A DNA stretch of 64,000 nt from Pleurocapsa sp. PCC 7319 (GTDB lineage Bacteria > Cyanobacteriota > Cyanobacteriia > Cyanobacteriales > Xenococcaceae). A model generated the notes under the pieces. That model was not told where the DNA came from, did no database searches, and saw nothing but the letters and a program-made list of their open reading frames with translations. Position numbers and translations under genes: made by a program. Below are positions 1-39,471 of the stretch, one piece after another; within the stretch, counting starts at the first letter, position 1; each line of letters starts with the position of its first letter. The stretch covers positions 992,001 to 1,056,000 of the forward strand of contig NZ_KB235922.1 of NCBI RefSeq assembly GCF_000332195.1. Direction: 5' to 3'.

Positions 1-233
1 TTAAAAGGGCATATAGCTGCGATATTAAATGATTTTACAAGTTAGAACCAGAAGGGTTCACAAGTAACAAGTAGGAAGTAGCAAGTAATATAGCTGCCTT
101 CGGAGCGGGGTAATACAATCAAAGATATAAACAAGGCAACATTACTTTTTGTATTATCTAACTTTCAGCTTGTTGGTGAAAGTTAATGATCGTGACTAAT
201 TTCTAATTATATATTCTTTTAAGTCGACAAGGT

Positions 234-1565
234 TTAAAAAATGAACCTTAAATTCAACTTCCACAATTGAGAATTTTCACGAATAATCTCAACTTGTTTA
301 ATAAATTCCCGAAAATAAAAACGTCTTTCTGATTCTGATAAATCCAACCAAAATTGCGGTAGAGAAACATCCTTGGCGATCGCTTGTAAATTACCAGGAG
401 GAAGTTGAGCAATTTTTTTTTCTAATTGGGATATTTCAGTGCGCAATTTATAGTTACGAATAGCGGCGGTTTCTTGGTCTAAAATTCCAGTTTTAAGTAG
501 TGTTGGTAGCTGATTAATAATGTCCTGTTTCTGTTTTACTTTGGTTTTTAATGCACCTTCAAGAGCAGTTTTATCAGGTAAATTTAGTTGAGCAACAGCT
601 AGAGGAAGCTCTGCACAGATCTTTTCAATAGTCTGGGTTAAAACTTCAGGGTAAGCAATTGCTTTGCATTTAGGATTTTGAGGACAACTATGACAACGCA
701 AGTATAAATATTCAGTATTCTTTTTATATCTGGTTACACGAGTAATATTCATAGTTAACTGGCATTGTTGACAAATAACTAAACCTGCTAGAGAGCGTGG
801 AGCACTAGCCGTTCTCGGTGGTAGAAGACTATTGCGTCGTAACAGACGATCTATTTGTGCTGCTTCTTCTCGGTTAATAATCGGTGTGTGGGTATTAGAA
901 ATTAAGTCTTTATTTTTGTACTTTAAATCTCCTCGATATACAGGATTAATTAACCAATTACGACCAGTAGAAGGAGAGATTTTTTTCCCATATCGTTTCT
1001 CTAAATATCTGACTGCACCTCGTAAAGAACCAAACAATAAAAATCTTTCAAAAAAGTCTTTGACCACAGGAGCAGTACTTTTATCAATGATATATTTATC
1101 CTGACCCCTTCGATATCCATAAGGAGCTTTTCCTGGGGGGGGAAGGATCTTGAGACGATTGCGAGCATGTCCTTGTTTCAAACGAATACTCTGACTACTG
1201 ACTTGTATTTGCTGCAGTAATCTGCTTAAATTAAGCTTAAGATCGTTATTATAAGTAAAATCGAAGTTACTAGCTTGCTCCCATTGAAAAGAATTGTAAT
1301 CTTGTTCTGTGGCGATAATTTTAATTCCTAAAGACTCTAGTTGAGCAAGGCGATCGCTAATTATACTAATATTTTTACCCAATTCATCTAAACGACGAAT
1401 TAATAAAAAATCGGGCTTGTCTTGTTGGCAGTCTGCAATCAATTGTTCCAACTGTTCATGCTTACCAAAATCTTGATAAACCTGGTTTATTTCTAAGCCC
1501 CATATTTCCTGATTTGGGGCTACTTCTAATAAAGGATCACTATATAAGTAGGCAATGATTTTCAT
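234..1565 (-). CDS. Serine-recombinase-family protein with altered catalytic motif
   Basis: 443 residues. The order of parts is that of large serine recombinases: a resolvase-like N-terminal domain (about 1-130), a recombinase domain (about 140-245, with PPPGKAPYGYRRG at its start), a zinc ribbon near 262-300 (CQQC and later CHSC/CK), then a charged helical region (about 330-395). The catalytic region is unusual. Active enzymes carry Y-x-R-x-S, but here the N-terminus reads AYLYSDP, so the arginine is Tyr and the serine is displaced by one position. The usual DRLGR segment reads LDELGKN. This resembles the XisF-like proteins of cyanobacteria. I infer either a variant recombinase or a DNA-binding protein without normal strand-exchange chemistry. 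No attachment sites are visible nearby. Confidence 0.8.
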   Translation of the reverse strand: MKIIAYLYSDPLLEVAPNQEIWGLEINQVYQDFGKHEQLEQLIADCQQDKPDFLLIRRLDELGKNISIISDRLAQLESLGIKIIATEQDYNSFQWEQASNFDFTYNNDLKLNLSRLLQQIQVSSQSIRLKQGHARNRLKILPPPGKAPYGYRRGQDKYIIDKSTAPVVKDFFERFLLFGSLRGAVRYLEKRYGKKISPSTGRNWLINPVYRGDLKYKNKDLISNTHTPIINREEAAQIDRLLRRNSLLPPRTASAPRSLAGLVICQQCQLTMNITRVTRYKKNTEYLYLRCHSCPQNPKCKAIAYPEVLTQTIEKICAELPLAVAQLNLPDKTALEGALKTKVKQKQDIINQLPTLLKTGILDQETAAIRNYKLRTEISQLEKKIAQLPPGNLQAIAKDVSLPQFWLDLSESERRFYFREFIKQVEIIRENSQLWKLNLRFIF

Positions 1566-30214: not shown

Positions 30215-30290
30215 TCGGATTGCCGAAAAGATTAACTAAGTAGCTGGCGATTTTCAGCATCCATCCATTACAAACAATTAGAATGTTAAA
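30215..30290 (+). pseudogene. 3' tail fragment of a third amidase
   Basis: GTAGCTGGCGATTTTCAGCATCC-like sequence followed by ATCCATTACAAACAATT parallels the last 45 bases of amidase copy 1 (AGCTGGTGATTTTCAACATC, then CATCTTTATAAACAAATT). The reading frame is broken. With the internal fragment at 28391 it brackets the AraC and GNAT genes, as if they lie inside the remains of one amidase gene. Confidence 0.55.
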
Positions 30291-30323
30291 GTCGAGAATC
30301 AGCCCATTATTCTAAAGATTGAG

Positions 30324-31643
30324 ATGAAAATCACTATCTTAACTGTCGGCACTCGTGGTGACGTTCAACCTTTCATAGCATTGGGTTTAGGTCTAAAGCA
30401 GATAGGTCATACAGTTACCATAGTGACTCATGCTATCTTTGAATCTTGGATTAGGAGTTATGGTTTTGACTTTGCGGAGATAGTAGGAGATCCTCAAGGA
30501 TTTATTGAATCAGAAGAAGGTCAAAAAATGCTGGAATCTGGCAGTAATCCGATTAAGTTTATCCGTTTGTTGAGCGATTCTATGAGTCCCTTTGTCGACA
30601 GTTTAATGTCGGATATATGGCAAGTTTGTCAATCTACAGATGCCATTATTGCTCATAGTATATTGTTTTGGACTTATGATTTAGCGTACAAGCTAGACAT
30701 TCCCTATTTTTTAGCTAGTTTTACGCCGCTTTCTTCAACAACGAAATACCCCGTATCGATGGGTTCGGGTAAATCTCAAGGAGGCTTATTTAATTATCTT
30801 AGTTATCCTCTATCTTTAATAATTTTTTGGCAGATATACAAAAAACCCGTTAATCAATGGCTAGAGTCTAATTTAAGTATGCCATCGCGATCGTTGTGGC
30901 GATCGCCTTTCTTGAGTATGAGAAAGCAAAAAGTTCCTTTTCTCTATGCTTATAGTAATTATGTTTTACCAAAACCCCAAAATGGGCGTAAAGATGATTA
31001 TGTTACGGGTTATTGGTTTTTAAACTCTGCAACAGATTGGACACCACCAGACGATTTAATCAATTTTCTTGGTGCAGGTTCTCCTCCAGTCTATATTGGC
31101 TTCGGCAGCATGAGTAATCGCGATCCAGAAGCTACAACAAAAATCGCTATAGCTGCGCTAGAAAAAACGAACCAAAGAGGCGTTATTTCAACTGGGTGGG
31201 GAGGAATTAGTAATATAGATTTGCCTGACAGTATCTTCAAAATAGATTCTGTGCCTCATGACTGGTTGTTTCCCAGATGTACTGCGTTGGTGCATCACGG
31301 TGGTGCGGGAACTACTGCGTCGGGCTTAAAAGCTGGTGTACCGACAATTATTGTGCCATTTTTTTCTGACCAACCTTTTTGGGGACACAGAGTAGCAGAT
31401 TTAGGTGTGGGTACAGAACCAATAGAACGAAAAAAACTAACTGTAGAAAATTTATCAGCAGCAATTGATCTGGCGATCGCCCAGGAGACTCTACGCGATC
31501 GCGCCAACTATTTGGGTCAAGAAATTCGCTCAGAAAATGGTGTTGATAATGCAGTCAAAGTAATTAATGAATATTTAGCTAGTTGGCGAGAAGCCCCACA
31601 TCTCTATTACGACAGCAATGAGTGTGGGATGAATCGCCAGTAA
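30324..31643 (+). CDS. UGT-type glycosyltransferase with insertion-altered C-terminus
   Basis: The first about 420 residues form a GT-B glycosyltransferase of the sterol/macrolide UGT type. The N-terminus MKITILTVGTRGDVQPFIAL is characteristic. The donor-binding motif VHHGGAGTTASGLKAGVPTI, then PFFSDQPFWGHRVADLGVG, is intact. Relatives glucosylate sterols, hopanoids, lipids or antibiotics. At VINEYLA the frame enters insertion-element copy 2, which adds about 17 foreign residues (SWREAPHLYYDSNECGMN). Only the last few native residues are lost, so the enzyme may still work. Confidence 0.85.
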   Translation: MKITILTVGTRGDVQPFIALGLGLKQIGHTVTIVTHAIFESWIRSYGFDFAEIVGDPQGFIESEEGQKMLESGSNPIKFIRLLSDSMSPFVDSLMSDIWQVCQSTDAIIAHSILFWTYDLAYKLDIPYFLASFTPLSSTTKYPVSMGSGKSQGGLFNYLSYPLSLIIFWQIYKKPVNQWLESNLSMPSRSLWRSPFLSMRKQKVPFLYAYSNYVLPKPQNGRKDDYVTGYWFLNSATDWTPPDDLINFLGAGSPPVYIGFGSMSNRDPEATTKIAIAALEKTNQRGVISTGWGGISNIDLPDSIFKIDSVPHDWLFPRCTALVHHGGAGTTASGLKAGVPTIIVPFFSDQPFWGHRVADLGVGTEPIERKKLTVENLSAAIDLAIAQETLRDRANYLGQEIRSENGVDNAVKVINEYLASWREAPHLYYDSNECGMNRQ

Positions 31644-32063
31644 TAGACTAGCTATAGGAGAATCTTGATTTTCTATATATTTTCTCAGTGTTGAAATAGT
31701 AACTCCACCACATGACGCGAGAAAGTAGCTACTATTCCAAACCACTTTCTTTTTATAGTATGTTTTCTCTAGTTCTGGTAAAAATTCTTGCCTCAGCTTA
31801 CGACTAGAAATACTTTTAAGGCTATTAACCAGTTTGCTTAATTGTATTTCTGGGTGGTATTGAAAAAGCAAGTGTGCGTGGTCACTCTCTGCGTTGAACT
31901 CAACGATTTTGCCGTCAAATTTATCCAACAAAGATTCCCAGATTTCATGAAGCCTATCTATCATTGGCGCAGTCAAAACTTTACGTCTGTATTTGGTTGT
32001 TAAAACTAAATGAGCTTTTAAATCAGATACAGAACGCCCTCTTGATACAAAATCTTTCTTCAT
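31575..32063 (-). CDS. tnpA: TnpA, HUH/Y1 transposase (copy 2)
   Basis: 162 residues, identical to the copy at 15541. The His-x-His (ESDHAHLLF) and nucleophile tyrosine region (LRKYIENQ) are intact, so it can probably act in trans on copy 1 and on other compatible ends. It overlaps the 3' end of the glycosyltransferase frame on the opposite strand. Confidence 0.9.
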   Translation of the reverse strand: MKKDFVSRGRSVSDLKAHLVLTTKYRRKVLTAPMIDRLHEIWESLLDKFDGKIVEFNAESDHAHLLFQYHPEIQLSKLVNSLKSISSRKLRQEFLPELEKTYYKKKVVWNSSYFLASCGGVTISTLRKYIENQDSPIASLLLAIHPTLIAVVIEMWGFSPTS

Positions 32064-33127
32064 GAATAGGTGGAGATAAATATGTTAATATCAGTGTATC
32101 AAAATAAACAACTCTAATTTTGCTATACAACTACCAGTACCGACTAAGACCAACTACAGAACAAAAGCTTGTCCTTAATGACTGGCTTCGTATCTGTCGG
32201 TACTGGTACAACCGCCAACTGAGAGAAAGGTTTGATTGGTGGTCGAAGAATCGTAGCTACACTGACCGATGCCCATTAATCTGTCATTTGCCACAGTTAA
32301 AAGAAAAACCTGAATATTATGGGCAAAAAAAGCAGCTACCAATAATCAAAAAAGATTTGGTTTCTGTTGGCTGGAGTGGTGAATTGTTGGACTTCAATTC
32401 TGTTCCCTCACAGACTCTGCAAGAGGTGTGCAAACGGGTGAAACTAGCTTTCAGTCGTTTCGTATCGGGAGACAAAAACGGTAAGCGTTCGGGCAAACCA
32501 AGATTCAAAACAAGCGTACGTTTCAGATCGATGGTTATGAGCGGGGTAAAGCTTCATTCTTGCTCTGTTGGTGGTAAATGGCTGCATATTAATTTGCCAA
32601 AAATAGGTATGGTCAAGGTGCGACATCATAGACAACTGGTTGATGGTGCAACATTAAAGCAAGCTCAGGTAATCAAGAAAGTCGATGGTTGGTACATCAA
32701 CCTAAGATTACAAGACGATTCTGTTCCTGATTTCCAGCCCGATATTACTCCTACTTGGGATAACTCATTGGGCATGGACGCTGTTCTTCATGAAAATGAC
32801 TATTTGGCTACGAGCGAAGGCGTTAAATTACCTAGTCTTAAGTCATTTCGGAAATCTCAAGGCAAACTAGCCAAGATTCAGGCGCGTAAATCTACAAAAA
32901 AACGAGGTAGTAAATCTCGTCGTAAGCTGGCGAAGCGCGAAGCCAAGCTACATCAGCAAATAGCGAGAGCTAGAAAAGATCATGCCTACAATACTGCCCA
33001 GGCTCTCCTTAATACTGGCAAAAAAGTTTTCTTTCATGAACAACTCAATCTTGCTGGGTTGAGTCGGAGGAATAAAGTTAAAACTGATGAGACGGGTAAG
33101 TTTTTACCTAATGGACAGTCAGTGTGA
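31579..33127 (+). mobile_element. IS200/IS605-type element, copy 2 (3' truncated)
   Basis: Offset by 16,034 bases, it repeats copy 1 from TTAGCTAGTTGGCGAG through the tnpB segment ending GGACAGTCAG, with identical encoded proteins. The left-end hairpin is kept (31584-31639). The right-end hairpin and the last third of tnpB are missing. The break is at GTCAG (33118-33122), a pentamer that also occurs in copy 1 at 17084 and 17468. Without its right end this copy should be immobile. Confidence 0.85.
32120..33127 (+). pseudogene. Truncated TnpB (copy 2)
   Basis: 335 codons. Residues 1-334 equal those of the copy at 16086. The frame then meets a stop (GQSV, TGA). RuvC motifs I and II are present, but motif III (VDRD) is lost, so the protein cannot be an active nuclease. 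Confidence 0.9.
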
Positions 33128-33354: not shown

Positions 33355-35748
33355 ATGAGAGATACGGAGCAACCGAGAGCTAGATCAACGCTGCTCAATT
33401 CGGGGGATATTTTACAATCCCGCTATCGAATTTTACATCAGTTGGGTCGTGGAGGCTTTAGCCGTACTTACTTGGCAGAAGATATTAATCGTTTTAAAGA
33501 ACGCTGCATGCTAAAAGAGTTTGCACCGCAACTTAAAGGAACGTTTGCCCTAGAAAAAGCGCAAGAGTTGTTTGCTAGAGAAGCTGGTGTTCTCTATCGG
33601 TTGCAACATGATCAAATCCCTCAATTTCGTCAATTATTTCGTTATAAGCACGAGAATAAGGAGGAGAGATTATTCCTCGTACAGGATTATGTTGAGGGTC
33701 AAACTTATCATGACCTGTTAAACAATCGTCTTAATGAAGGAAAGAAATTTAGTGAAGCTAAAATCAGTCAATTATTGAGACAAGTTCTACCTATTCTAGA
33801 ATATATCCACTCGATGGGAGTGATTCACCGCGATATTTCTCCTGATAATTTAATTTTACGTAGCGCAGATGAACTAACAGTCTTGATTGACTTTGGCTGT
33901 ATTAAAGAAGTGGAAAACAAGACTCAATTAGAATTACAGTCCCTAGTCGGCACGGCTATAGGCAAGACGGGATATGCTCCACCAGAGCAAATTGAACGAG
34001 GTATTGTCTTTGCTCATAGTGATTTATATGCTTTAGCAGCAACTGCGGTAGTGCTGCTGACAGGAAAAGAACCAAAACAATTAATTGATCTCAATGGTTA
34101 TCGGTGGAATTGGCAAGAAGAAGTGACTCTTAGTCCTAAGTTGGAGTGGATTTTAACTACTATGCTCTCTCCCAATCCTAGCGATCGCTTTGGTAGTGCT
34201 GTCGAAGTCAGTCAAATCCTGGACTCTATCTCAGTTGAAACTCCTACTCAAAAACGAATAGAACTTACTAAGACTGCTGTCCCCTCCGTCAGAAACAAAG
34301 CTGTCTCTAACTTATTCAAGCAAAAACCACCAAGCAAAATATATATTATGCCTGCTGCAATCTCCAAACCGGTTTTTTTTGGCTCTTTAGCTACAGTTTT
34401 ACTTTTAGGAGGATTGTTGTGTTTAAAATTACAAGACTTAGATCTTGTTGCTCCTGCGGTTTCCAATTTAGATAATTCTGTTCGGGTAGACTCCCAACTA
34501 CAAACGCGATTTAGTCAGGGAGAAAAGATTTTAATTTCTCAAACAAGTACGCCTGAGAAACAAATGGCTGTAGCAAGTTTTGTACAAGGTGATTATGAGC
34601 GCGCTGAGTCTTCACTTTTAGCATCTTTAGAAACTGTTGCTAATGACCCTGAAGCTCTAATTTATCTCAATAACTCTCGCATCGGTCAAGAAAAATCTTA
34701 TAGCATTGCTGTCTCTATTCCGATTGGTAGTGATGTCAATGCAGCCCAAGAAATTTTACGGGGTGTGGCTCAAGCTCAAGAGCGAGTAAATCAAGCCGGT
34801 GGAATTGATGGTATTCCTCTAAAAGTCCAAATTATTAATGACGATAATGATCCAGAGATAGCCCAACAGATAGCTAAAACCCTAAGTCAAGATCGAGAAA
34901 TTTTAGGGGTAGTTGGTCATTATGCCAGTGATGTGACTTTAGCTACCACCAAAATTTATCAAGCTGATCAATTAGTAGCAATTTCGCCGATTAGTACTTC
35001 AGTCAAGCTATCTAATCTCAGTCCTTATTTATTTCGGACTGTTCCGAGTGATTATCTTGCAGGAAGAGGTTTAGCAGAATATATGTTGGAGAATCTTCAG
35101 CAGAAAAATGTGGCGGTCTTTTACAATTCTCAAAGCAACTATAGTGAGTCTCTCAAATCTGAGTTTGACGCTGCGGTTGCTCTTGGTGGAGGAAGAGTGG
35201 TTAATACCTTCGATCTGTCTGATGCCAATTTTAATGCTGCCAACAGCTTTCAGCAAGCAGTGGCTGAAGGTGCAGAAGTAATTATGCTGGCTGCTAATAC
35301 TGGCACTCTCGACAAGGCTTTACAGGTGGTTCAAGTTAATCGTCAACAGCTCACCTTGCTGGGTGGTGATGATGTATATACTCCTAAAACTTTGCAGATC
35401 GCAGGAGAATTTGCCGAAGATATGGTGTTGGCAATTCCCTGGCATATCAAAAGTAATCCTGATACTGAGTTTGTTCAAGATGCTCGCCAACTTTGGGGAG
35501 GAGCAGTTAACTGGCGCACAGCAATGGCTTACGATGCAGCCCTAGCTTTGATTACTGCTATTGATCGCAGTCCCAATCCTACTCGCATCAGTATCCAAAA
35601 GACACTTTCTGATTCTGACTTTTCTACTGCTGGTGCTAATAGTCAAGTTAGCTTTCTACCTTCAGGCGATCGCTTAAGTAATATTCAGCTAGTAAAAATT
35701 CAGTCCAGTAATAACAATTTTGGTTACGAATTTGTACCGATTGATTAG
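33355..35748 (+). CDS. Membrane serine/threonine kinase with a periplasmic amino-acid-type binding domain
   Basis: 797 residues. The kinase (about 25-290) has the glycine loop LGRGGFSRTYLAED, ATP-binding Lys in CMLKEFAP, catalytic loop VIHRDISPDNLI, metal-binding VLIDFGCIKEV, and GYAPPEQIERG. A basic linker leads to one membrane helix (starting VFFGSLATVLLLGGLLCL, about 344-361). The outer part (about 445-795) is a type 1 periplasmic binding fold of the branched-chain amino acid receptor group: YSIAVSIPIGSDVNAAQEIL, then VVGHYASDVTLATTKIYQ and ISPISTSVKLS. It should sense an extracellular small molecule and phosphorylate cytoplasmic targets. The next gene starts 69 bp downstream and may be a partner. 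Confidence 0.9.
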   Translation: MRDTEQPRARSTLLNSGDILQSRYRILHQLGRGGFSRTYLAEDINRFKERCMLKEFAPQLKGTFALEKAQELFAREAGVLYRLQHDQIPQFRQLFRYKHENKEERLFLVQDYVEGQTYHDLLNNRLNEGKKFSEAKISQLLRQVLPILEYIHSMGVIHRDISPDNLILRSADELTVLIDFGCIKEVENKTQLELQSLVGTAIGKTGYAPPEQIERGIVFAHSDLYALAATAVVLLTGKEPKQLIDLNGYRWNWQEEVTLSPKLEWILTTMLSPNPSDRFGSAVEVSQILDSISVETPTQKRIELTKTAVPSVRNKAVSNLFKQKPPSKIYIMPAAISKPVFFGSLATVLLLGGLLCLKLQDLDLVAPAVSNLDNSVRVDSQLQTRFSQGEKILISQTSTPEKQMAVASFVQGDYERAESSLLASLETVANDPEALIYLNNSRIGQEKSYSIAVSIPIGSDVNAAQEILRGVAQAQERVNQAGGIDGIPLKVQIINDDNDPEIAQQIAKTLSQDREILGVVGHYASDVTLATTKIYQADQLVAISPISTSVKLSNLSPYLFRTVPSDYLAGRGLAEYMLENLQQKNVAVFYNSQSNYSESLKSEFDAAVALGGGRVVNTFDLSDANFNAANSFQQAVAEGAEVIMLAANTGTLDKALQVVQVNRQQLTLLGGDDVYTPKTLQIAGEFAEDMVLAIPWHIKSNPDTEFVQDARQLWGGAVNWRTAMAYDAALALITAIDRSPNPTRISIQKTLSDSDFSTAGANSQVSFLPSGDRLSNIQLVKIQSSNNNFGYEFVPID

Positions 35749-35817: not shown

Positions 35818-38800
35818 ATGCAAAAGTTTGTTTGGTTATCAAGATTCGCAAATATAATTCCAGAGGCGATCGCTTTTTCGCTCGTTGCTAGCACCATAGA
35901 AACTCAGTCAGTATCTGTTACATGTTTATTGTGGCTCTTTTATACCCTGATACTTAGATTTATTTGGAATAGTGGAATTTTAATTCATGGACTAGGGCAT
36001 AGTATAGCGATCGCCTTAGTTGATCAGCAATTATCAGTTCTTAATTTAACCAACATTCTCGAACATCGAAGTCTAGCTGATGCGATCAAGTCCTTATTTC
36101 CTTTTAAGGGAATATTTATTCCCTGGCTAGAGTCTCAATCTGTTCTTTGGCTAGGAGTAGGTTCTACGAAAAAAGGTATACAAATCAAAGCTGTGGGAGG
36201 AATATTAGGCAATCTGTTACTGGTTACGATTATTCTGGTTTTTGCTCCCAGTAATATTGTCAGCCAAACCTTAATCGTTACCAATCTCATAATTGCTATA
36301 TCTTCTCTTTCAGACATAGATGCATTTATAACAGGAGTAGCAGATTCCTTTTATTGTGGTAACTTTGGCTTTATCGTCCAACGCCAACCCGATGATGGCG
36401 ATCGACTATTACCTGCCAGAATGCTAGAAATGGCTCAAAAAATGGGACGGGAAACCGAAATTCGTGGCGAGCAAGCTGGAGGTGGGCTAGTGATGGCGAG
36501 TGATGGCGAGCAGCCTGTTTTTGTCGGTAAAAAGATCGTTAATAAAAAAAGGGGTAATTTAACTAAATCTCTAGAAGCAGCCTTTGCACCTATACGAAAA
36601 AAAGCGCTTGCTTCTGGGATCAAACCTTCAGAATCATCGACAATGGGAATATGGCATTATCGCTATGGTACCAGTGGTTCTCCCCCTTCTGAACTAGAAA
36701 CCCATTGGCATGAATGGATGGGGGCAAGAGATGAAGCAGTGTGGCAGTTTACAGATAGAGAATGGAGCTGTAAAACTAAAAATGTCCATCACTGCATCAC
36801 TCACAATGGTGATTTTGACAGTTGGAAAATATTTGGTCAAGAGATTGATATTGCTAGGTTAGGTTTATGGTTAGAGCGAGTTTTGCATACCCCCAACGCT
36901 ACTCAAGGAGATTCTCCCAAGATTGCCGGGATGATGGATTTGTTAGTGACTAAAGGAATGTGGTTTCCTTCGCTACGACTGGCTTATCAACAGGCGATCG
37001 CAACTTCAATTGAGTCAGCCTTTGGCGGACAAGAACCCTCTCCCGATGCACCTAATACGGCACCTTCTATCGAAGAGCTAACTAGTTGGACAAAAATCTT
37101 TGAGAATGTTTTCTCTCAAGAAGGATTATGGTTTGACGAAACTGATTTCCTCTCTTATCCCAAATACTTAAGTTATCTAGAGAAAAATCTTTTATACGCG
37201 ACCGCTAAAGTCAAATCAATGGCACAATGGTCCAGGCAACAAAGAGTAGCTTTTATTCAAGTTGCAATCAAAGCTTTTGTCCAAAACGATTTATATCGTG
37301 CCACTCAAATATTCATGTCCAAGGCTCAAGGTAGTTTCGGTTTGGTTACAGTTTCTACCCTAGAAGATTCACAATTAATTCTCAGTGCTAAAGGGCAGCC
37401 CATAACCATTGGTTTTAATTGGCAGCAAGGTTATATGGTTTATGCTTCCGAACCCGTAGCCGTAGATCGAGTTTTATTAGGAACTTCTCAGTCTTTCCGT
37501 CTAGATCTAAATCAAAAAGAAGGAGAAATTGCCAAAGTCAGTGCTGTAGATATCAATGTCTACTCAATGAGTAAACACAAGGAATTGATAGGCTCAGAAT
37601 TACAAGATAGATGGATACCGATGGCAGATCATCCCCATTTACCACATATTCAGTTCGCCGATTCTAGCTCTCCAGATCCTATTGCCAACGATATCCGCTC
37701 AATTCCCCGCGTCCTAAATGACATTAAAACTTCATGGCAAAATCCAGCTTCTCTCAATCGTCAGAGTGCCAATTATATGGCATATCTCCTCACGGAAAAA
37801 GTACAACGCTTCGAGGGAAGACAACGAATGATGTTTCATGCCGGATTAATCAGTCAGATAAGACGACTATCAACTGTCGATTTATTAATTACTGGGGAAG
37901 AAAATAGTCTCTGGCTAGGAGAAAGATTTGCTCAGGATTTAAAGACTATTTTTCCCTTTTTGAATGTGGTCACTTTGTCTGCAAATGAAGTTTTACAGCA
38001 GCTAAGTCAAGACTTTAGTCAACTCTATGTAGGTAAAGACTCTTTAGTACTAGCTATAACTCAGTCTGGTCAAACTTTTTCTACCATACAGGTAATTAAT
38101 ACCTTTGACCATTTGTGCCGTCAAGGGATGATCGGCGAACTATTTATTCTCACCGGGGAGTTGAGCAGTTTTATGAATTCTACTCAGGGTAATGGTGGAC
38201 TTACGGCAATTGCTTCTTCCCCTTTTTTTGATAACTCCAAGAATAAAAATCATCGGATTTTTGTCAATGGTAGTGGTCGGAGGACAGCGGAATCTGGGAC
38301 TGTTTCAGTTGCTGCTGCCAATCAAACTTTAACAGAACTCCTGTTGTATCTTGCCAAGCAGATGAGGAAGAATTTTCCGCGTTCGGAGCCTTTTGGCATG
38401 ACCTTAACCCAGGAAAGTTTGATGGTTTTAGCCATGATCAAGGAAGATTTTCTGCATAAAAATGTCATCCAGATTATGGGCATTAATACCCAAGGAGAAC
38501 CGATTAAATCTACAATTAGGCAAAAACTGATTCAAGGCGGTCGCTATTGGGGACTTCATGTTACTGAAACTCCCCTAGCCTGGGCAATTCACGCTTTATA
38601 TGTGTTGATAACGGTAGGAGCAGTAATTCCTGTCGGTGACACCATTCCTTTGGTCAAGACATTATGGGCAATAATTTTGGCTGTGGCTAATTTACCCCAG
38701 AGTTTATGGGAATTAACTGCACCTATGGTAACTATTACCGATATTGCCATTTATATTTTTGGTCCCTGGCTGTGGACTTTATTAATACGTTATTTTCAAG

Positions 38801-39471
38801 GTAGGCAACTTCTCGCACGAATGGGTAAAAGAACTCTGGTAATTGGTGATGTGTCTTGGGTCAACCAGTTATTACAATCCTATGTCAGTAAACTCTTTTC
38901 CCTTAGCTATGGCATTGCCTCAATAGACGTACACGAAGGTAATCCTCAGAATCATTTTCTGCACACTTTTGGACATCGAATCGTACGAGGTACTTTAATC
39001 TGGTTAGGTGTACCCGATGGTAGGCGTAGTCAACAACTGCAAGCAGCAGAAAATGCGGTGCTAATGACTGGAAAACATGCTAACGGAGTGAGAAATATTA
39101 ATGTTGGACCAGAAATTATGGTGATGGGACATAATCCGGCGATCGCCCGTAAAGGTTTTCACAATGCCCTACTTTTAGGCAGCAATAATGACTCCATCTA
39201 CTTTAGAAATCTTGCTGTGGCGGAGCAAAAAGAGCAAATTGAAACATTGAGAGAATCCTGTTTTGGGGCTTTTGAAAGGTTGCTAGCTAGTTATGTTTTT
39301 TTCTGGGCGTTGGCGCAAAAAGTAGCTTCTTTTCCTCTGCTCAAGTATCAATATTGGAAATCTCAAAGTCGAACCAAAATTATGACCACTGCTTCACCTG
39401 TTTCCGGTTTAGACTCAAGTAAATTGACAGAGAAATTTCGCTCCCCATCCCTACTTAATACTTCTCGGTAA
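35818..39471 (+). CDS. Membrane protein fusing M50-like, class II glutamine amidotransferase and SIS domains
   Basis: 1217 residues; GGGAGAAACAA precedes the ATG. Residues 1-178: several membrane helices with HGLGH at 57-61 (the metalloprotease HExxH with Glu replaced by Gly), then GGILGNLLLVTIILVFAP and SLSDIDAF, a layout like site-2 proteases but probably inactive. From 180 a class II amidotransferase domain begins: CGNFGFIVQ (Cys180), RGEQAGGG (GlmS RGYDSAG), WHYRYGTSG (GlmS HTRWATHG), THNGDFD (GlmS HNG). An SIS-like domain follows (LLITGEENSLWLGERFAQDL, LAITQSGQTFSTIQVI). Two further membrane helices lie near 920-985, with a soluble C-terminal region after. By family logic it would move ammonia from glutamine to a sugar phosphate near the membrane. 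It is not ordinary GlmS, and Cys180 needs to be freed. Confidence 0.8.
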   Translation: MQKFVWLSRFANIIPEAIAFSLVASTIETQSVSVTCLLWLFYTLILRFIWNSGILIHGLGHSIAIALVDQQLSVLNLTNILEHRSLADAIKSLFPFKGIFIPWLESQSVLWLGVGSTKKGIQIKAVGGILGNLLLVTIILVFAPSNIVSQTLIVTNLIIAISSLSDIDAFITGVADSFYCGNFGFIVQRQPDDGDRLLPARMLEMAQKMGRETEIRGEQAGGGLVMASDGEQPVFVGKKIVNKKRGNLTKSLEAAFAPIRKKALASGIKPSESSTMGIWHYRYGTSGSPPSELETHWHEWMGARDEAVWQFTDREWSCKTKNVHHCITHNGDFDSWKIFGQEIDIARLGLWLERVLHTPNATQGDSPKIAGMMDLLVTKGMWFPSLRLAYQQAIATSIESAFGGQEPSPDAPNTAPSIEELTSWTKIFENVFSQEGLWFDETDFLSYPKYLSYLEKNLLYATAKVKSMAQWSRQQRVAFIQVAIKAFVQNDLYRATQIFMSKAQGSFGLVTVSTLEDSQLILSAKGQPITIGFNWQQGYMVYASEPVAVDRVLLGTSQSFRLDLNQKEGEIAKVSAVDINVYSMSKHKELIGSELQDRWIPMADHPHLPHIQFADSSSPDPIANDIRSIPRVLNDIKTSWQNPASLNRQSANYMAYLLTEKVQRFEGRQRMMFHAGLISQIRRLSTVDLLITGEENSLWLGERFAQDLKTIFPFLNVVTLSANEVLQQLSQDFSQLYVGKDSLVLAITQSGQTFSTIQVINTFDHLCRQGMIGELFILTGELSSFMNSTQGNGGLTAIASSPFFDNSKNKNHRIFVNGSGRRTAESGTVSVAAANQTLTELLLYLAKQMRKNFPRSEPFGMTLTQESLMVLAMIKEDFLHKNVIQIMGINTQGEPIKSTIRQKLIQGGRYWGLHVTETPLAWAIHALYVLITVGAVIPVGDTIPLVKTLWAIILAVANLPQSLWELTAPMVTITDIAIYIFGPWLWTLLIRYFQGRQLLARMGKRTLVIGDVSWVNQLLQSYVSKLFSLSYGIASIDVHEGNPQNHFLHTFGHRIVRGTLIWLGVPDGRRSQQLQAAENAVLMTGKHANGVRNINVGPEIMVMGHNPAIARKGFHNALLLGSNNDSIYFRNLAVAEQKEQIETLRESCFGAFERLLASYVFFWALAQKVASFPLLKYQYWKSQSRTKIMTTASPVSGLDSSKLTEKFRSPSLLNTSR

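What the first reader, a model, noticed from the sequence alone, without database searches (positions are those of the whole stretch)
35818..39471. Class II amidotransferase whose catalytic cysteine is buried behind a membrane protease-like domain
Cys180 begins CGNFGFIVQ and the other class II glutaminase motifs follow in order (RGEQAGGG, YRYGTSG, THNGD). Known enzymes of this class need that cysteine at the very N-terminus, sometimes after propeptide removal. Here about 180 residues with several membrane helices precede it, arranged like an M50 site-2 protease but with HGLGH in place of HExxH. I infer either processing between Tyr179 and Cys180 that frees an active glutaminase from its membrane leader, or a dead glutaminase used as a sensor. 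The downstream SIS domain with SQSG-like TQSGQTF suggests a sugar-phosphate substrate. I know of no described protein with this order of domains.
Basis: partly seen in the sequence, partly recalled or inferred. Interest (0 to 1): 0.85.

Follow-up and report, generated by a model that had tools for sequence, protein, structure and literature searches.

The report
Amidotransferase with removable membrane leader
A cyanobacterial enzyme related to the one that makes glucosamine phosphate carries a membrane-embedded front piece, and the eight relatives found without this piece begin exactly at the catalytic cysteine, which suggests the piece is normally cut off to switch the enzyme on.

Summary
The 1217-aa ORF has every motif where stated. 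It belongs to a patchily distributed cyanobacterial family that no Pfam or NCBIfam model claims at its cut-off. Predicted structures show a GlmS/GFAT plan. Residues 180-612 are the Ntn glutaminase, Cys180 on residue 1 of GlmS (Z 25.4). Residues 613-1182 are the double-SIS isomerase (Z 30.9), with a membrane insert. Residues 1-179 are an extra membrane leader.

The main new evidence is a natural experiment. Eight homologues lack the leader, and all eight start ATG-TGC/TGT, that is Met-Cys180, 2-6 codons after an in-frame stop. They need five losses on the tree (four forced by well-supported branches). No leader was found in the four such genomes searched. Glutaminase residues are kept in 42 of 43 rows.

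So Cys180 very probably works as an N-terminal nucleophile, and long forms must be cleaved before it. Autocatalysis is inferred. The leader keeps an S2P-like H..GH in 35 of 35 rows but lacks the catalytic Glu in 34, so an ordinary S2P cut in cis is unlikely; its kinship to S2Ps is not shown. The 'dead sensor' reading fails for all but one row. Substrate unknown.

The parts
35818..39471 (+). whole gene, 1217 aa
   Evidence: homologues
35818..36354 (+). membrane leader, residues 1-179, absent from 8 natural homologues
   Evidence: helices in model, hydropathy, leaderless forms
35986..36000 (+). HGLGH (res 57-61): like HExxH without the Glu; H57, G60, H61 in 35 of 35 rows, Glu in 1 of 35
36199..36213 (+). 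GILGN (res 128-132); G128 and N132 in 35 of 35 rows; comparison with the S2P AGP/GxxxN region is by eye and by one global alignment
36313..36315 (+). D166, 35 of 35 rows; candidate third metal ligand by spacing only (the profile alignment does not place it on the LDG Asp)
36352..36357 (+). proposed cleavage bond Tyr179-Cys180
   Evidence: Cys180 invariant; residues 176-178 are one of three stretches with pLDDT under 50
36355..37653 (+). Ntn class II glutaminase domain, res 180-612, with a variable insert about res 400-485
   Evidence: GlmS glutaminase 1xff_B Z 25.4, 2.3 A, 238 residues, 24% id, range 180..611 on 1..239
36463..36486 (+). RGEQAGGG motif (res 216-223)
36655..36678 (+). HYRYGTSG motif (res 280-287), counterpart of GlmS HTRWATHG
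36799..36813 (+). THNGD (res 328-332), oxyanion-hole Asn-Gly
   Evidence: assignment from family knowledge
36907..36921 (+). GDSPK (res 364-368), probable counterpart of the Gln-binding Asp loop of GlmS
   Evidence: D365 42 of 43; assignment inferred
37735..38397 (+). SIS domain 1 (about res 640-860, bounds mine) with TQSGQT at 748-753
   Evidence: fold; sequence, (with the glutaminase part) and 29 columns alone
38530..38802 (+). membrane insert between the two SIS domains (about res 905-995, bounds mine)
38803..39402 (+). SIS domain 2 (about res 996-1195, bounds mine)
   Evidence: 3tbf_D Z 30.9, 3.0 A, 343 residues over both SIS domains, model 14..583 = res 613-1182; by fold only, no sequence match

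Best explanation
The gene encodes a membrane-bound relative of glucosamine-6-phosphate synthase, made as a precursor. The leader (res 1-179) and the insert between the SIS domains sit in the membrane; the glutaminase and SIS domains are taken to lie in the cytosol. The precursor is cut between residues 179 and 180, most likely by the Ntn domain itself as in GPAT-type amidotransferases, so that Cys180 gets the free amino group it needs. The mature enzyme then releases ammonia from glutamine and passes it to the SIS pair, which aminates a sugar phosphate or similar ketose at the membrane. Shown: domain plan by predicted structure, invariance of the glutaminase site, absence of the leader with a start exactly at Met-Cys in eight homologues. 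Inferred: that cleavage occurs, that it is autocatalytic, the topology, and the substrate.
For: Eight of eight leaderless homologues start Met-Cys, 2-6 residues after an in-frame stop. The 42-row tree, rooted by me on the two Cyanobium rows, needs five changes, at least four forced by starred branches; 0% of 200 bootstrap trees have one. One clade of the first four leaderless genes is rejected, AU p 5.9e-94. The leader is absent at E<=1 from the four leaderless genomes searched; three control genomes gave it, though their own leaders were in the query. Cys180 29 of 29 and 43 of 43; R282, N330 and D365 42 of 43. Cys180 falls on GlmS residue 1, Z 25.4; the double SIS matches at Z 30.9. The codon before Cys180 in long forms is Tyr, Asn or Cys (His in L052), so no internal start can make Met-Cys there. 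Precedent: GPRATs remove a short N-terminal propeptide autocatalytically, and AtGPRAT2 exposes Cys87 (PMC7056826, passages); class II GATs are described as autocatalytically cleaved before the Cys (PMC9140057, passages).
Against: No direct evidence of cleavage; everything is sequence and prediction. H57, H61, N132 and D166 are invariant in 35 of 35 rows, more than a passive propeptide seems to need. A leader of about 180 residues with several helices is far larger than the short propeptides I know of in this class. SIS2 matches by fold only, SIS1 alone by 29 columns, and the Schiff-base lysine of GlmS cannot be placed (K1187 is Arg in 10 of 42; model confidence there is under 50), so the sugar chemistry is uncertain. 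One homologue (L052) has lost the glutaminase residues. The first glutaminase half taken alone aligns only weakly with GlmS by profile (prob 8.7 and 13.6).
Confidence: 0.78

Rival explanations
1. The leader is an active M50/S2P-type metalloprotease that cuts its own C-terminal linker before Cys180.
For: H57, H61, D166, G128 and N132 are invariant in 35 of 35 leader rows. Global profile alignment to SpoIVFB-type S2Ps gives E 2.9e-5, prob 47.6, against 0.64 / 0.1 for reversed leaders. One row has an intact HELGH (L012). SpoIVFB cuts a pro-sequence next to its HEXXH site (PMC11486902, passages).
Against: The water-activating Glu is Gly in 34 of 35, and E44Q abolishes SpoIVFB activity (PMC11486902, passages). 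The global alignment does not put D166 on the LDG Asp; against M50B the global alignment gives prob 0.1, like the reversed control. Pfam gives M50 for 1 of 17 leaders at E 1.1 and 1 of 23 longer rows at 0.098. Local matches are short or off the motifs. Confidence was lowered from 0.12 on rechecking these.
Confidence: 0.1
2. The leader is never removed: it is a permanent membrane anchor and the glutaminase is inactive or a glutamine sensor.
For: One degenerate homologue, L052, keeps a full ORF while losing R282, N330, D332 and D365.
Against: In 42 of 43 rows the glutaminase set is kept, in leader-bearing and leaderless forms alike; five losses on the tree all land on Met-Cys.
Confidence: 0.08
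3. The leader is removed by a host protease (signal peptidase-like or other), not by the protein itself.
For: The residue before Cys180 is limited to Tyr, Asn or Cys in rows with an intact glutaminase, and Gly173 is 35 of 35; residues 176-178 are low-confidence in the model. Leaderless forms need no such protease.
Against: Related class II enzymes process themselves (PMC7056826, PMC9140057, passages). The M48 gene beside the window copy is in none of the 40 shared neighbour clusters printed; neighbours were not annotated systematically.
Confidence: 0.2

Closest known systems
GlmS / GFAT (glutamine-fructose-6-phosphate amidotransferase)
   Same: Ntn glutaminase with Cys at structural residue 1, followed by a double-SIS isomerase domain; fold matches Z 25.4 and 30.9; TQSGQT/SQSGQT loop
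   Different: Membrane leader in 35 of 43 rows; membrane insert between the SIS domains; extra insert in the glutaminase; 26.3 bits against a 381-bit NCBIfam cut-off; SIS2 not alignable by sequence. The same genome has a canonical GlmS at 810 bits.
GPRAT/GPATase and GltB precursors (propeptide-processed class II amidotransferases)
   Same: Catalytic Cys exposed by removing an N-terminal extension (PMC7056826, passages; GltB from recall)
   Different: Known extensions are short propeptides or transit peptides (passages and recall), not a membrane domain
M50 site-2 proteases, SpoIVFB type
   Same: H..GH in a membrane helix, with later invariant Gly/Asn and Asp positions
   Different: No Glu in the HExxH position in 34 of 35 rows; the LDG Asp match is by spacing only; no Pfam call
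EGY3-type S2P pseudoproteases
   Same: S2P-like membrane domain without the full catalytic motif (PMC10978774, passages)
   Different: EGY3 is described there as lacking the zinc-binding motif; here both His positions are kept and only Glu is lost; I know of no EGY3 fused to an amidotransferase (recall)

Membership tests
Class II (Ntn, C44) glutamine amidotransferase | Ntn-hydrolase glutaminase fold with Cys at the first position of the domain | tested here: met
   aligned range 180..611 on GlmS 1..239; Z 25.4, 2.3 A, 238 residues
Class II (Ntn, C44) glutamine amidotransferase | conserved catalytic Cys, Arg, Asn-Gly | tested here: met
   C180 29/29; C180 43/43, R282 42/43, N330 42/43, G331 43/43
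Class II (Ntn, C44) glutamine amidotransferase | free N-terminal Cys in the mature protein | tested here: inconclusive
   8 of 8 leaderless homologues encode Met-Cys; for the window protein cleavage is inferred, not seen
GlmS / GFAT | glutaminase followed by two SIS domains | tested here: met
   predicted structures
GlmS / GFAT | score over the curated NCBIfam cut-off | tested here: not met
   26.3 of 381 bits (NF001484), 21.4 of 418 bits (TIGR01135)
GlmS / GFAT | isomerase catalytic residues (Lys603, Glu488, His504 of E. coli; recalled) | tested here: inconclusive
   SIS2 does not align by sequence; K1025, H1049 and H1053 43/43 but not assignable; K1187 Lys or Arg
GlmS / GFAT | glucosamine-6-phosphate synthesis | not testable with these tools
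   needs an enzyme assay
Peptidase M50 (site-2 protease) | HExxH with catalytic Glu | tested here: not met
   Glu in 1 of 35 rows, Gly in 34 of 35
Peptidase M50 (site-2 protease) | two His and the LDG Asp as metal ligands | tested here: inconclusive
   H57, H61, D166 35/35, but D166 is not on the LDG Asp in the profile alignment; metal binding not tested
Peptidase M50 (site-2 protease) | profile or fold match | tested here: inconclusive
   the leader was not folded alone and the fold search list was filled by the glutaminase

The most novel reading that the evidence does not exclude
The leader is a site-2-protease fold turned into a one-shot maturation device. It gave up the water-activating Glu because the nucleophile is now the substrate's own Cys180, while a kept metal site (H57, H61, perhaps D166) polarises the 179-180 peptide bond next to it. 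The membrane domain and the Ntn domain would together make a composite active site that frees the cysteine and leashes ammonia production to the membrane until processing.
Probability: 0.1. Interest if true: 0.9.

Novelty: new variant of a known kind. Interest (0 to 1): 0.68.

Why it matters
It gives a natural test of the rule that class II amidotransferases need an N-terminal cysteine: on our tree a membrane leader was lost five times, and each time the protein begins Met-Cys. It also points to a GlmS-like amidotransferase built into the membrane beside the ordinary GlmS of the same cell, and to an S2P-like leader with both His positions kept but no catalytic Glu. Leader-bearing and leaderless pairs, even two genes about 9 kb apart in one genome (G750), make the maturation mechanism directly testable.

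Tried and rejected
Dead-sensor reading: rejected for the family, because the catalytic set holds in 42 of 43 rows. Internal translation start at Cys180 in long forms: rejected, since the codon before is Tyr, Asn or Cys (His in L052), never a start codon. Stand-alone leader genes: none found in the 291 genomes, where every leader match with E below 1e-30 lay in an open frame of 345 aa or more. In one search one short leader ORF, L160, turned up, but it runs off a contig end inside CGNFG. Weak leader matches (L083 to L086 and others) were not resolved.

Rows dropped before the 43-row count: incomplete, contig-cut or broken copies (L014-L016, L020/L141, L021/L025/L044, L022/L047/L143, L024, L053/L056, L080/L132, L157/L160, L158) and repeats of the same gene under another locus id; one identical pair (L042/L149) stayed in, so 42 rows are distinct. 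Where these dropped rows reach the site (L044, L022, L047, L080, L158), they too have Cys180.

Pfam on the whole protein and its parts gave nothing. Pfam over members gave stray matches: M50 at E 1.1 in 1 of 17 and 0.098 in 1 of 23, SIS at best 0.094 in 2 of 23. PDB by sequence gave nothing usable: GlmS glutaminase at E 0.22, and FliQ helix matches to the membrane insert. Leader against S2Ps: single-protein hhalign matches were 17 and 11 columns. In one search the local match to the SpoIVFB type (prob 60.4) lay off the motifs, the local match to M50B was weak (prob 7.0) and the global one failed (prob 0.1); only the global alignment to the SpoIVFB type stood above its reversed control, and even that leaves D166 off the LDG Asp. 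So 'M50-like' is a lead, not a result. In that test 10 of 29 fetched M50 loci gave no usable ORF by my pattern and were dropped; L096 probably gave a wrong-frame ORF and stayed in the seven-row M50B set. The absence of an S2P from the fold-search lists is uninformative.

Mapping of the GlmS isomerase lysine: tried by profile and by alignment ends; abandoned as unreliable. SIS1 by sequence alone gave 29 columns. Gene neighbourhood: no shared operon seen; Pfam was run on seven neighbours only. Plasmids and phages: no match for residues 180-1217 at E 1e-5. Papers: searches returned none; two searches gave listings of background papers. I saw passages of PMC10202637, PMC11486902, PMC10978774, PMC7056826, PMC9140057 and PMC13421311 (the last not used), no whole text. 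The library is open-licence PMC only.
Full report
Observation. Cys180 is codon 36355-36357, preceded by Tyr179. The gene is real: the genome holds two further full-length copies at 73% and 60% identity, and a pattern scan of the 84,980-species collection gave 25 loci, all 25 titled as cyanobacteria. In sampled genomes a match was found in 15 of 60 relatives (one of the 15, G031, is ordinary GlmS), 23 of 388 genomes of the order, 18 of 388 of the class and 4 of 386 of the phylum (one of the four, G034, is ordinary GlmS). These counts include the own genome where it was searched, fragments and broken copies. No match was found in plasmid or phage records.

What it is. Pfam gives nothing for the protein or its parts, and NCBIfam gives only GlmS matches far below the cut-offs, 26.3 of 381 bits and 21.4 of 418 bits. 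Structure prediction from two 23-row alignments gave a good model for residues 1-612 (mean pLDDT 84.8, pTM 0.71; stretches 176-178, 216-218 and 285-289 under 50) and a fair one for 600-1210 (76.3, 0.80). The first superposes on the GlmS glutaminase domain: 1xff_B Z 25.4, 2.3 A, 238 residues, 24% identity, range 180..611 on 1..239. The second superposes on the GlmS double-SIS isomerase: 3tbf_D Z 30.9, 3.0 A, 343 residues, model 14..583, that is residues 613-1182. By sequence profile the C-terminal half of the glutaminase is clearly GlmS-like (prob 97), and an alignment that begins there runs on through SIS1 (prob 91.9). The first glutaminase half alone is weak (prob 8.7 and 13.6) though it sets Cys180 on the GlmS Cys; SIS1 alone gives 29 columns around TQSGQT; SIS2 gives nothing. 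So the protein is GlmS-like with three extras: a membrane leader (1-179), an insert in the glutaminase (about 400-485) and a membrane insert between the SIS domains (about 905-995; hydropathy). The host also has an ordinary GlmS (810 bits), so this is probably not the housekeeping enzyme.

The natural experiment. Four of the 25 loci matched only from residue 180 onward. Reading upstream, each begins ATG-TGC or ATG-TGT, that is Met-Cys180, with an in-frame stop just before. Wider searches raised this to eight distinct leaderless genes, eight of eight with Met directly before Cys180 and 2-6 residues between the upstream stop and the Cys. On a 42-row tree of residues 180 to the end, rooted by me on the two Cyanobium rows, the early branches carry the leader, and the leaderless state needs five changes; branches with strong support force four; none of 200 bootstrap trees has one, and the 5-95% range is 5-5. 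In an earlier 31-row tree, holding the four first-found leaderless genes together is rejected (AU p 5.9e-94). L133 has a long branch, so its placement is less sure. The leader profile was not found at E<=1 in the four leaderless genomes searched (L032, L038, L040, L041), while three control genomes gave it; the controls' own leaders were part of the query, so they show only that the search works. The other leaderless genomes were not searched this way. One genome, G750, has a leader-bearing and a leaderless copy about 9 kb apart. The leader is therefore dispensable, and when it goes the protein begins at this cysteine. That is what an N-terminal nucleophile demands once methionine aminopeptidase has acted (established knowledge).

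Active-site conservation. Cys180 is invariant in 29 of 29 rows picked without regard to it. In 43 aligned rows (42 distinct) Cys180 and Gly181 are invariant, with the caveat that 15 of these rows were picked with a pattern holding the Cys; a pattern free at that position found no complete member without it. R282, N330, D332 and D365 are kept in 42 of 43. The exception, L052, keeps the Cys but has lost the others, has His at position 179 and Ser at 1181, and looks like a decaying copy. SIS1 loop residues S697, S750, T753 and S784 are kept in 42, 43, 41 and 42 of 43. In long forms the residue before Cys180 is Tyr 26, Asn 5, Cys 3, His 1 of 35, so no internal start can yield Met-Cys. A cut is needed if the enzyme is to work as its relatives do.

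The leader. Mean pairwise identity is 0.39 in the leader against 0.60 in the first glutaminase part and 0.63 in SIS2; the glutaminase insert is lower still, 0.32 (19 leader-bearing rows). Yet H57, G60, H61, G128, N132 and D166 are invariant in 35 of 35 rows, and the Glu of HExxH is present in one (L012, HELGH) and Gly in 34. S2Ps use HExxH and an LDG Asp to bind zinc and the Glu to activate water (PMC10202637, passages), and E44Q abolishes SpoIVFB activity (PMC11486902, passages). A global profile alignment with SpoIVFB-type S2Ps puts HGLGH on HELGH and gives E 2.9e-5 (prob 47.6) against 0.64 (prob 0.1) for reversed leaders, but it does not put D166 on the LDG Asp; against M50B the global alignment gives prob 0.1. 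Local alignments are weak or off the motifs, and Pfam reports M50 at E 1.1 for one of 17 leaders and 0.098 for one of 23 longer rows. I call the leader M50-like as a lead only. A conventional metalloprotease cut is unlikely without the Glu.

Mechanism. Related enzymes remove N-terminal propeptides autocatalytically, and AtGPRAT2 exposes Cys87 in this way (PMC7056826, passages; PMC9140057, passages). I therefore think the 179-180 bond is cut by the Ntn domain itself, after which glutamine-derived ammonia is used by the SIS pair on a ketose-phosphate-like substrate at the membrane. Shown: plan, conservation, repeated Met-Cys starts. Inferred: cleavage, autocatalysis, topology, substrate. The invariant leader residues are not explained by a passive propeptide; a metal-assisted version of the same cut is my boldest reading (probability lowered from 0.12 to 0.10 on rechecking the S2P alignment).

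Novelty. The searches, over open-licence PMC papers only, returned no paper; that is weak evidence of absence. I rate it a new variant of a known kind: a membrane-built GlmS relative with a removable leader.

Noticed in passing
window 31574-33122 and L059 10790-12338: An IS200/IS605-type element (OrfB_IS605 by Pfam) is 99.9% identical over 1549 bp beside the window gene and beside its 73%-identical paralogue: recent insertions next to both copies.
   Followed up: partly
window 33355-35748: Immediately upstream is a Ser/Thr protein kinase fused to a periplasmic-binding domain (Pkinase + Peripla_BP_6); similar kinase ORFs lie near the gene in five other loci, two of which are copies from one genome (L026, L027/L049, L030, L047).
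   Followed up: partly
L052 1336-5070: A homologue in a one-contig genome keeps a full ORF but has lost R282, N330, D332, D365 and K1181: a pseudoenzyme or a gene in decay.
   Followed up: partly
L053/L056, L044, L021/L025, L080/L132, L014-L016: Broken or partial copies of the gene in several genomes, suggesting frequent loss; some may be contig ends; described only.
   Followed up: no
L119, L120, L142: In one lineage the residue before Cys180 is also Cys (EIFC|CGNFG), so two candidate nucleophiles sit side by side.
   Followed up: no
L030 8584-9879, window 30282-31640, L027, L038: Glycosyltransferase genes in one blastp cluster near some copies; Pfam was run on the L030 one only (UDPGT), which starts about 50 bp downstream of the gene. 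By eye the window one looks like another subfamily.
   Followed up: partly
L028, L029, L044, L048, L060: These copies share a divergently oriented neighbour with repeated helices that looks like a PepSY-type membrane protein (by eye, not tested).
   Followed up: no
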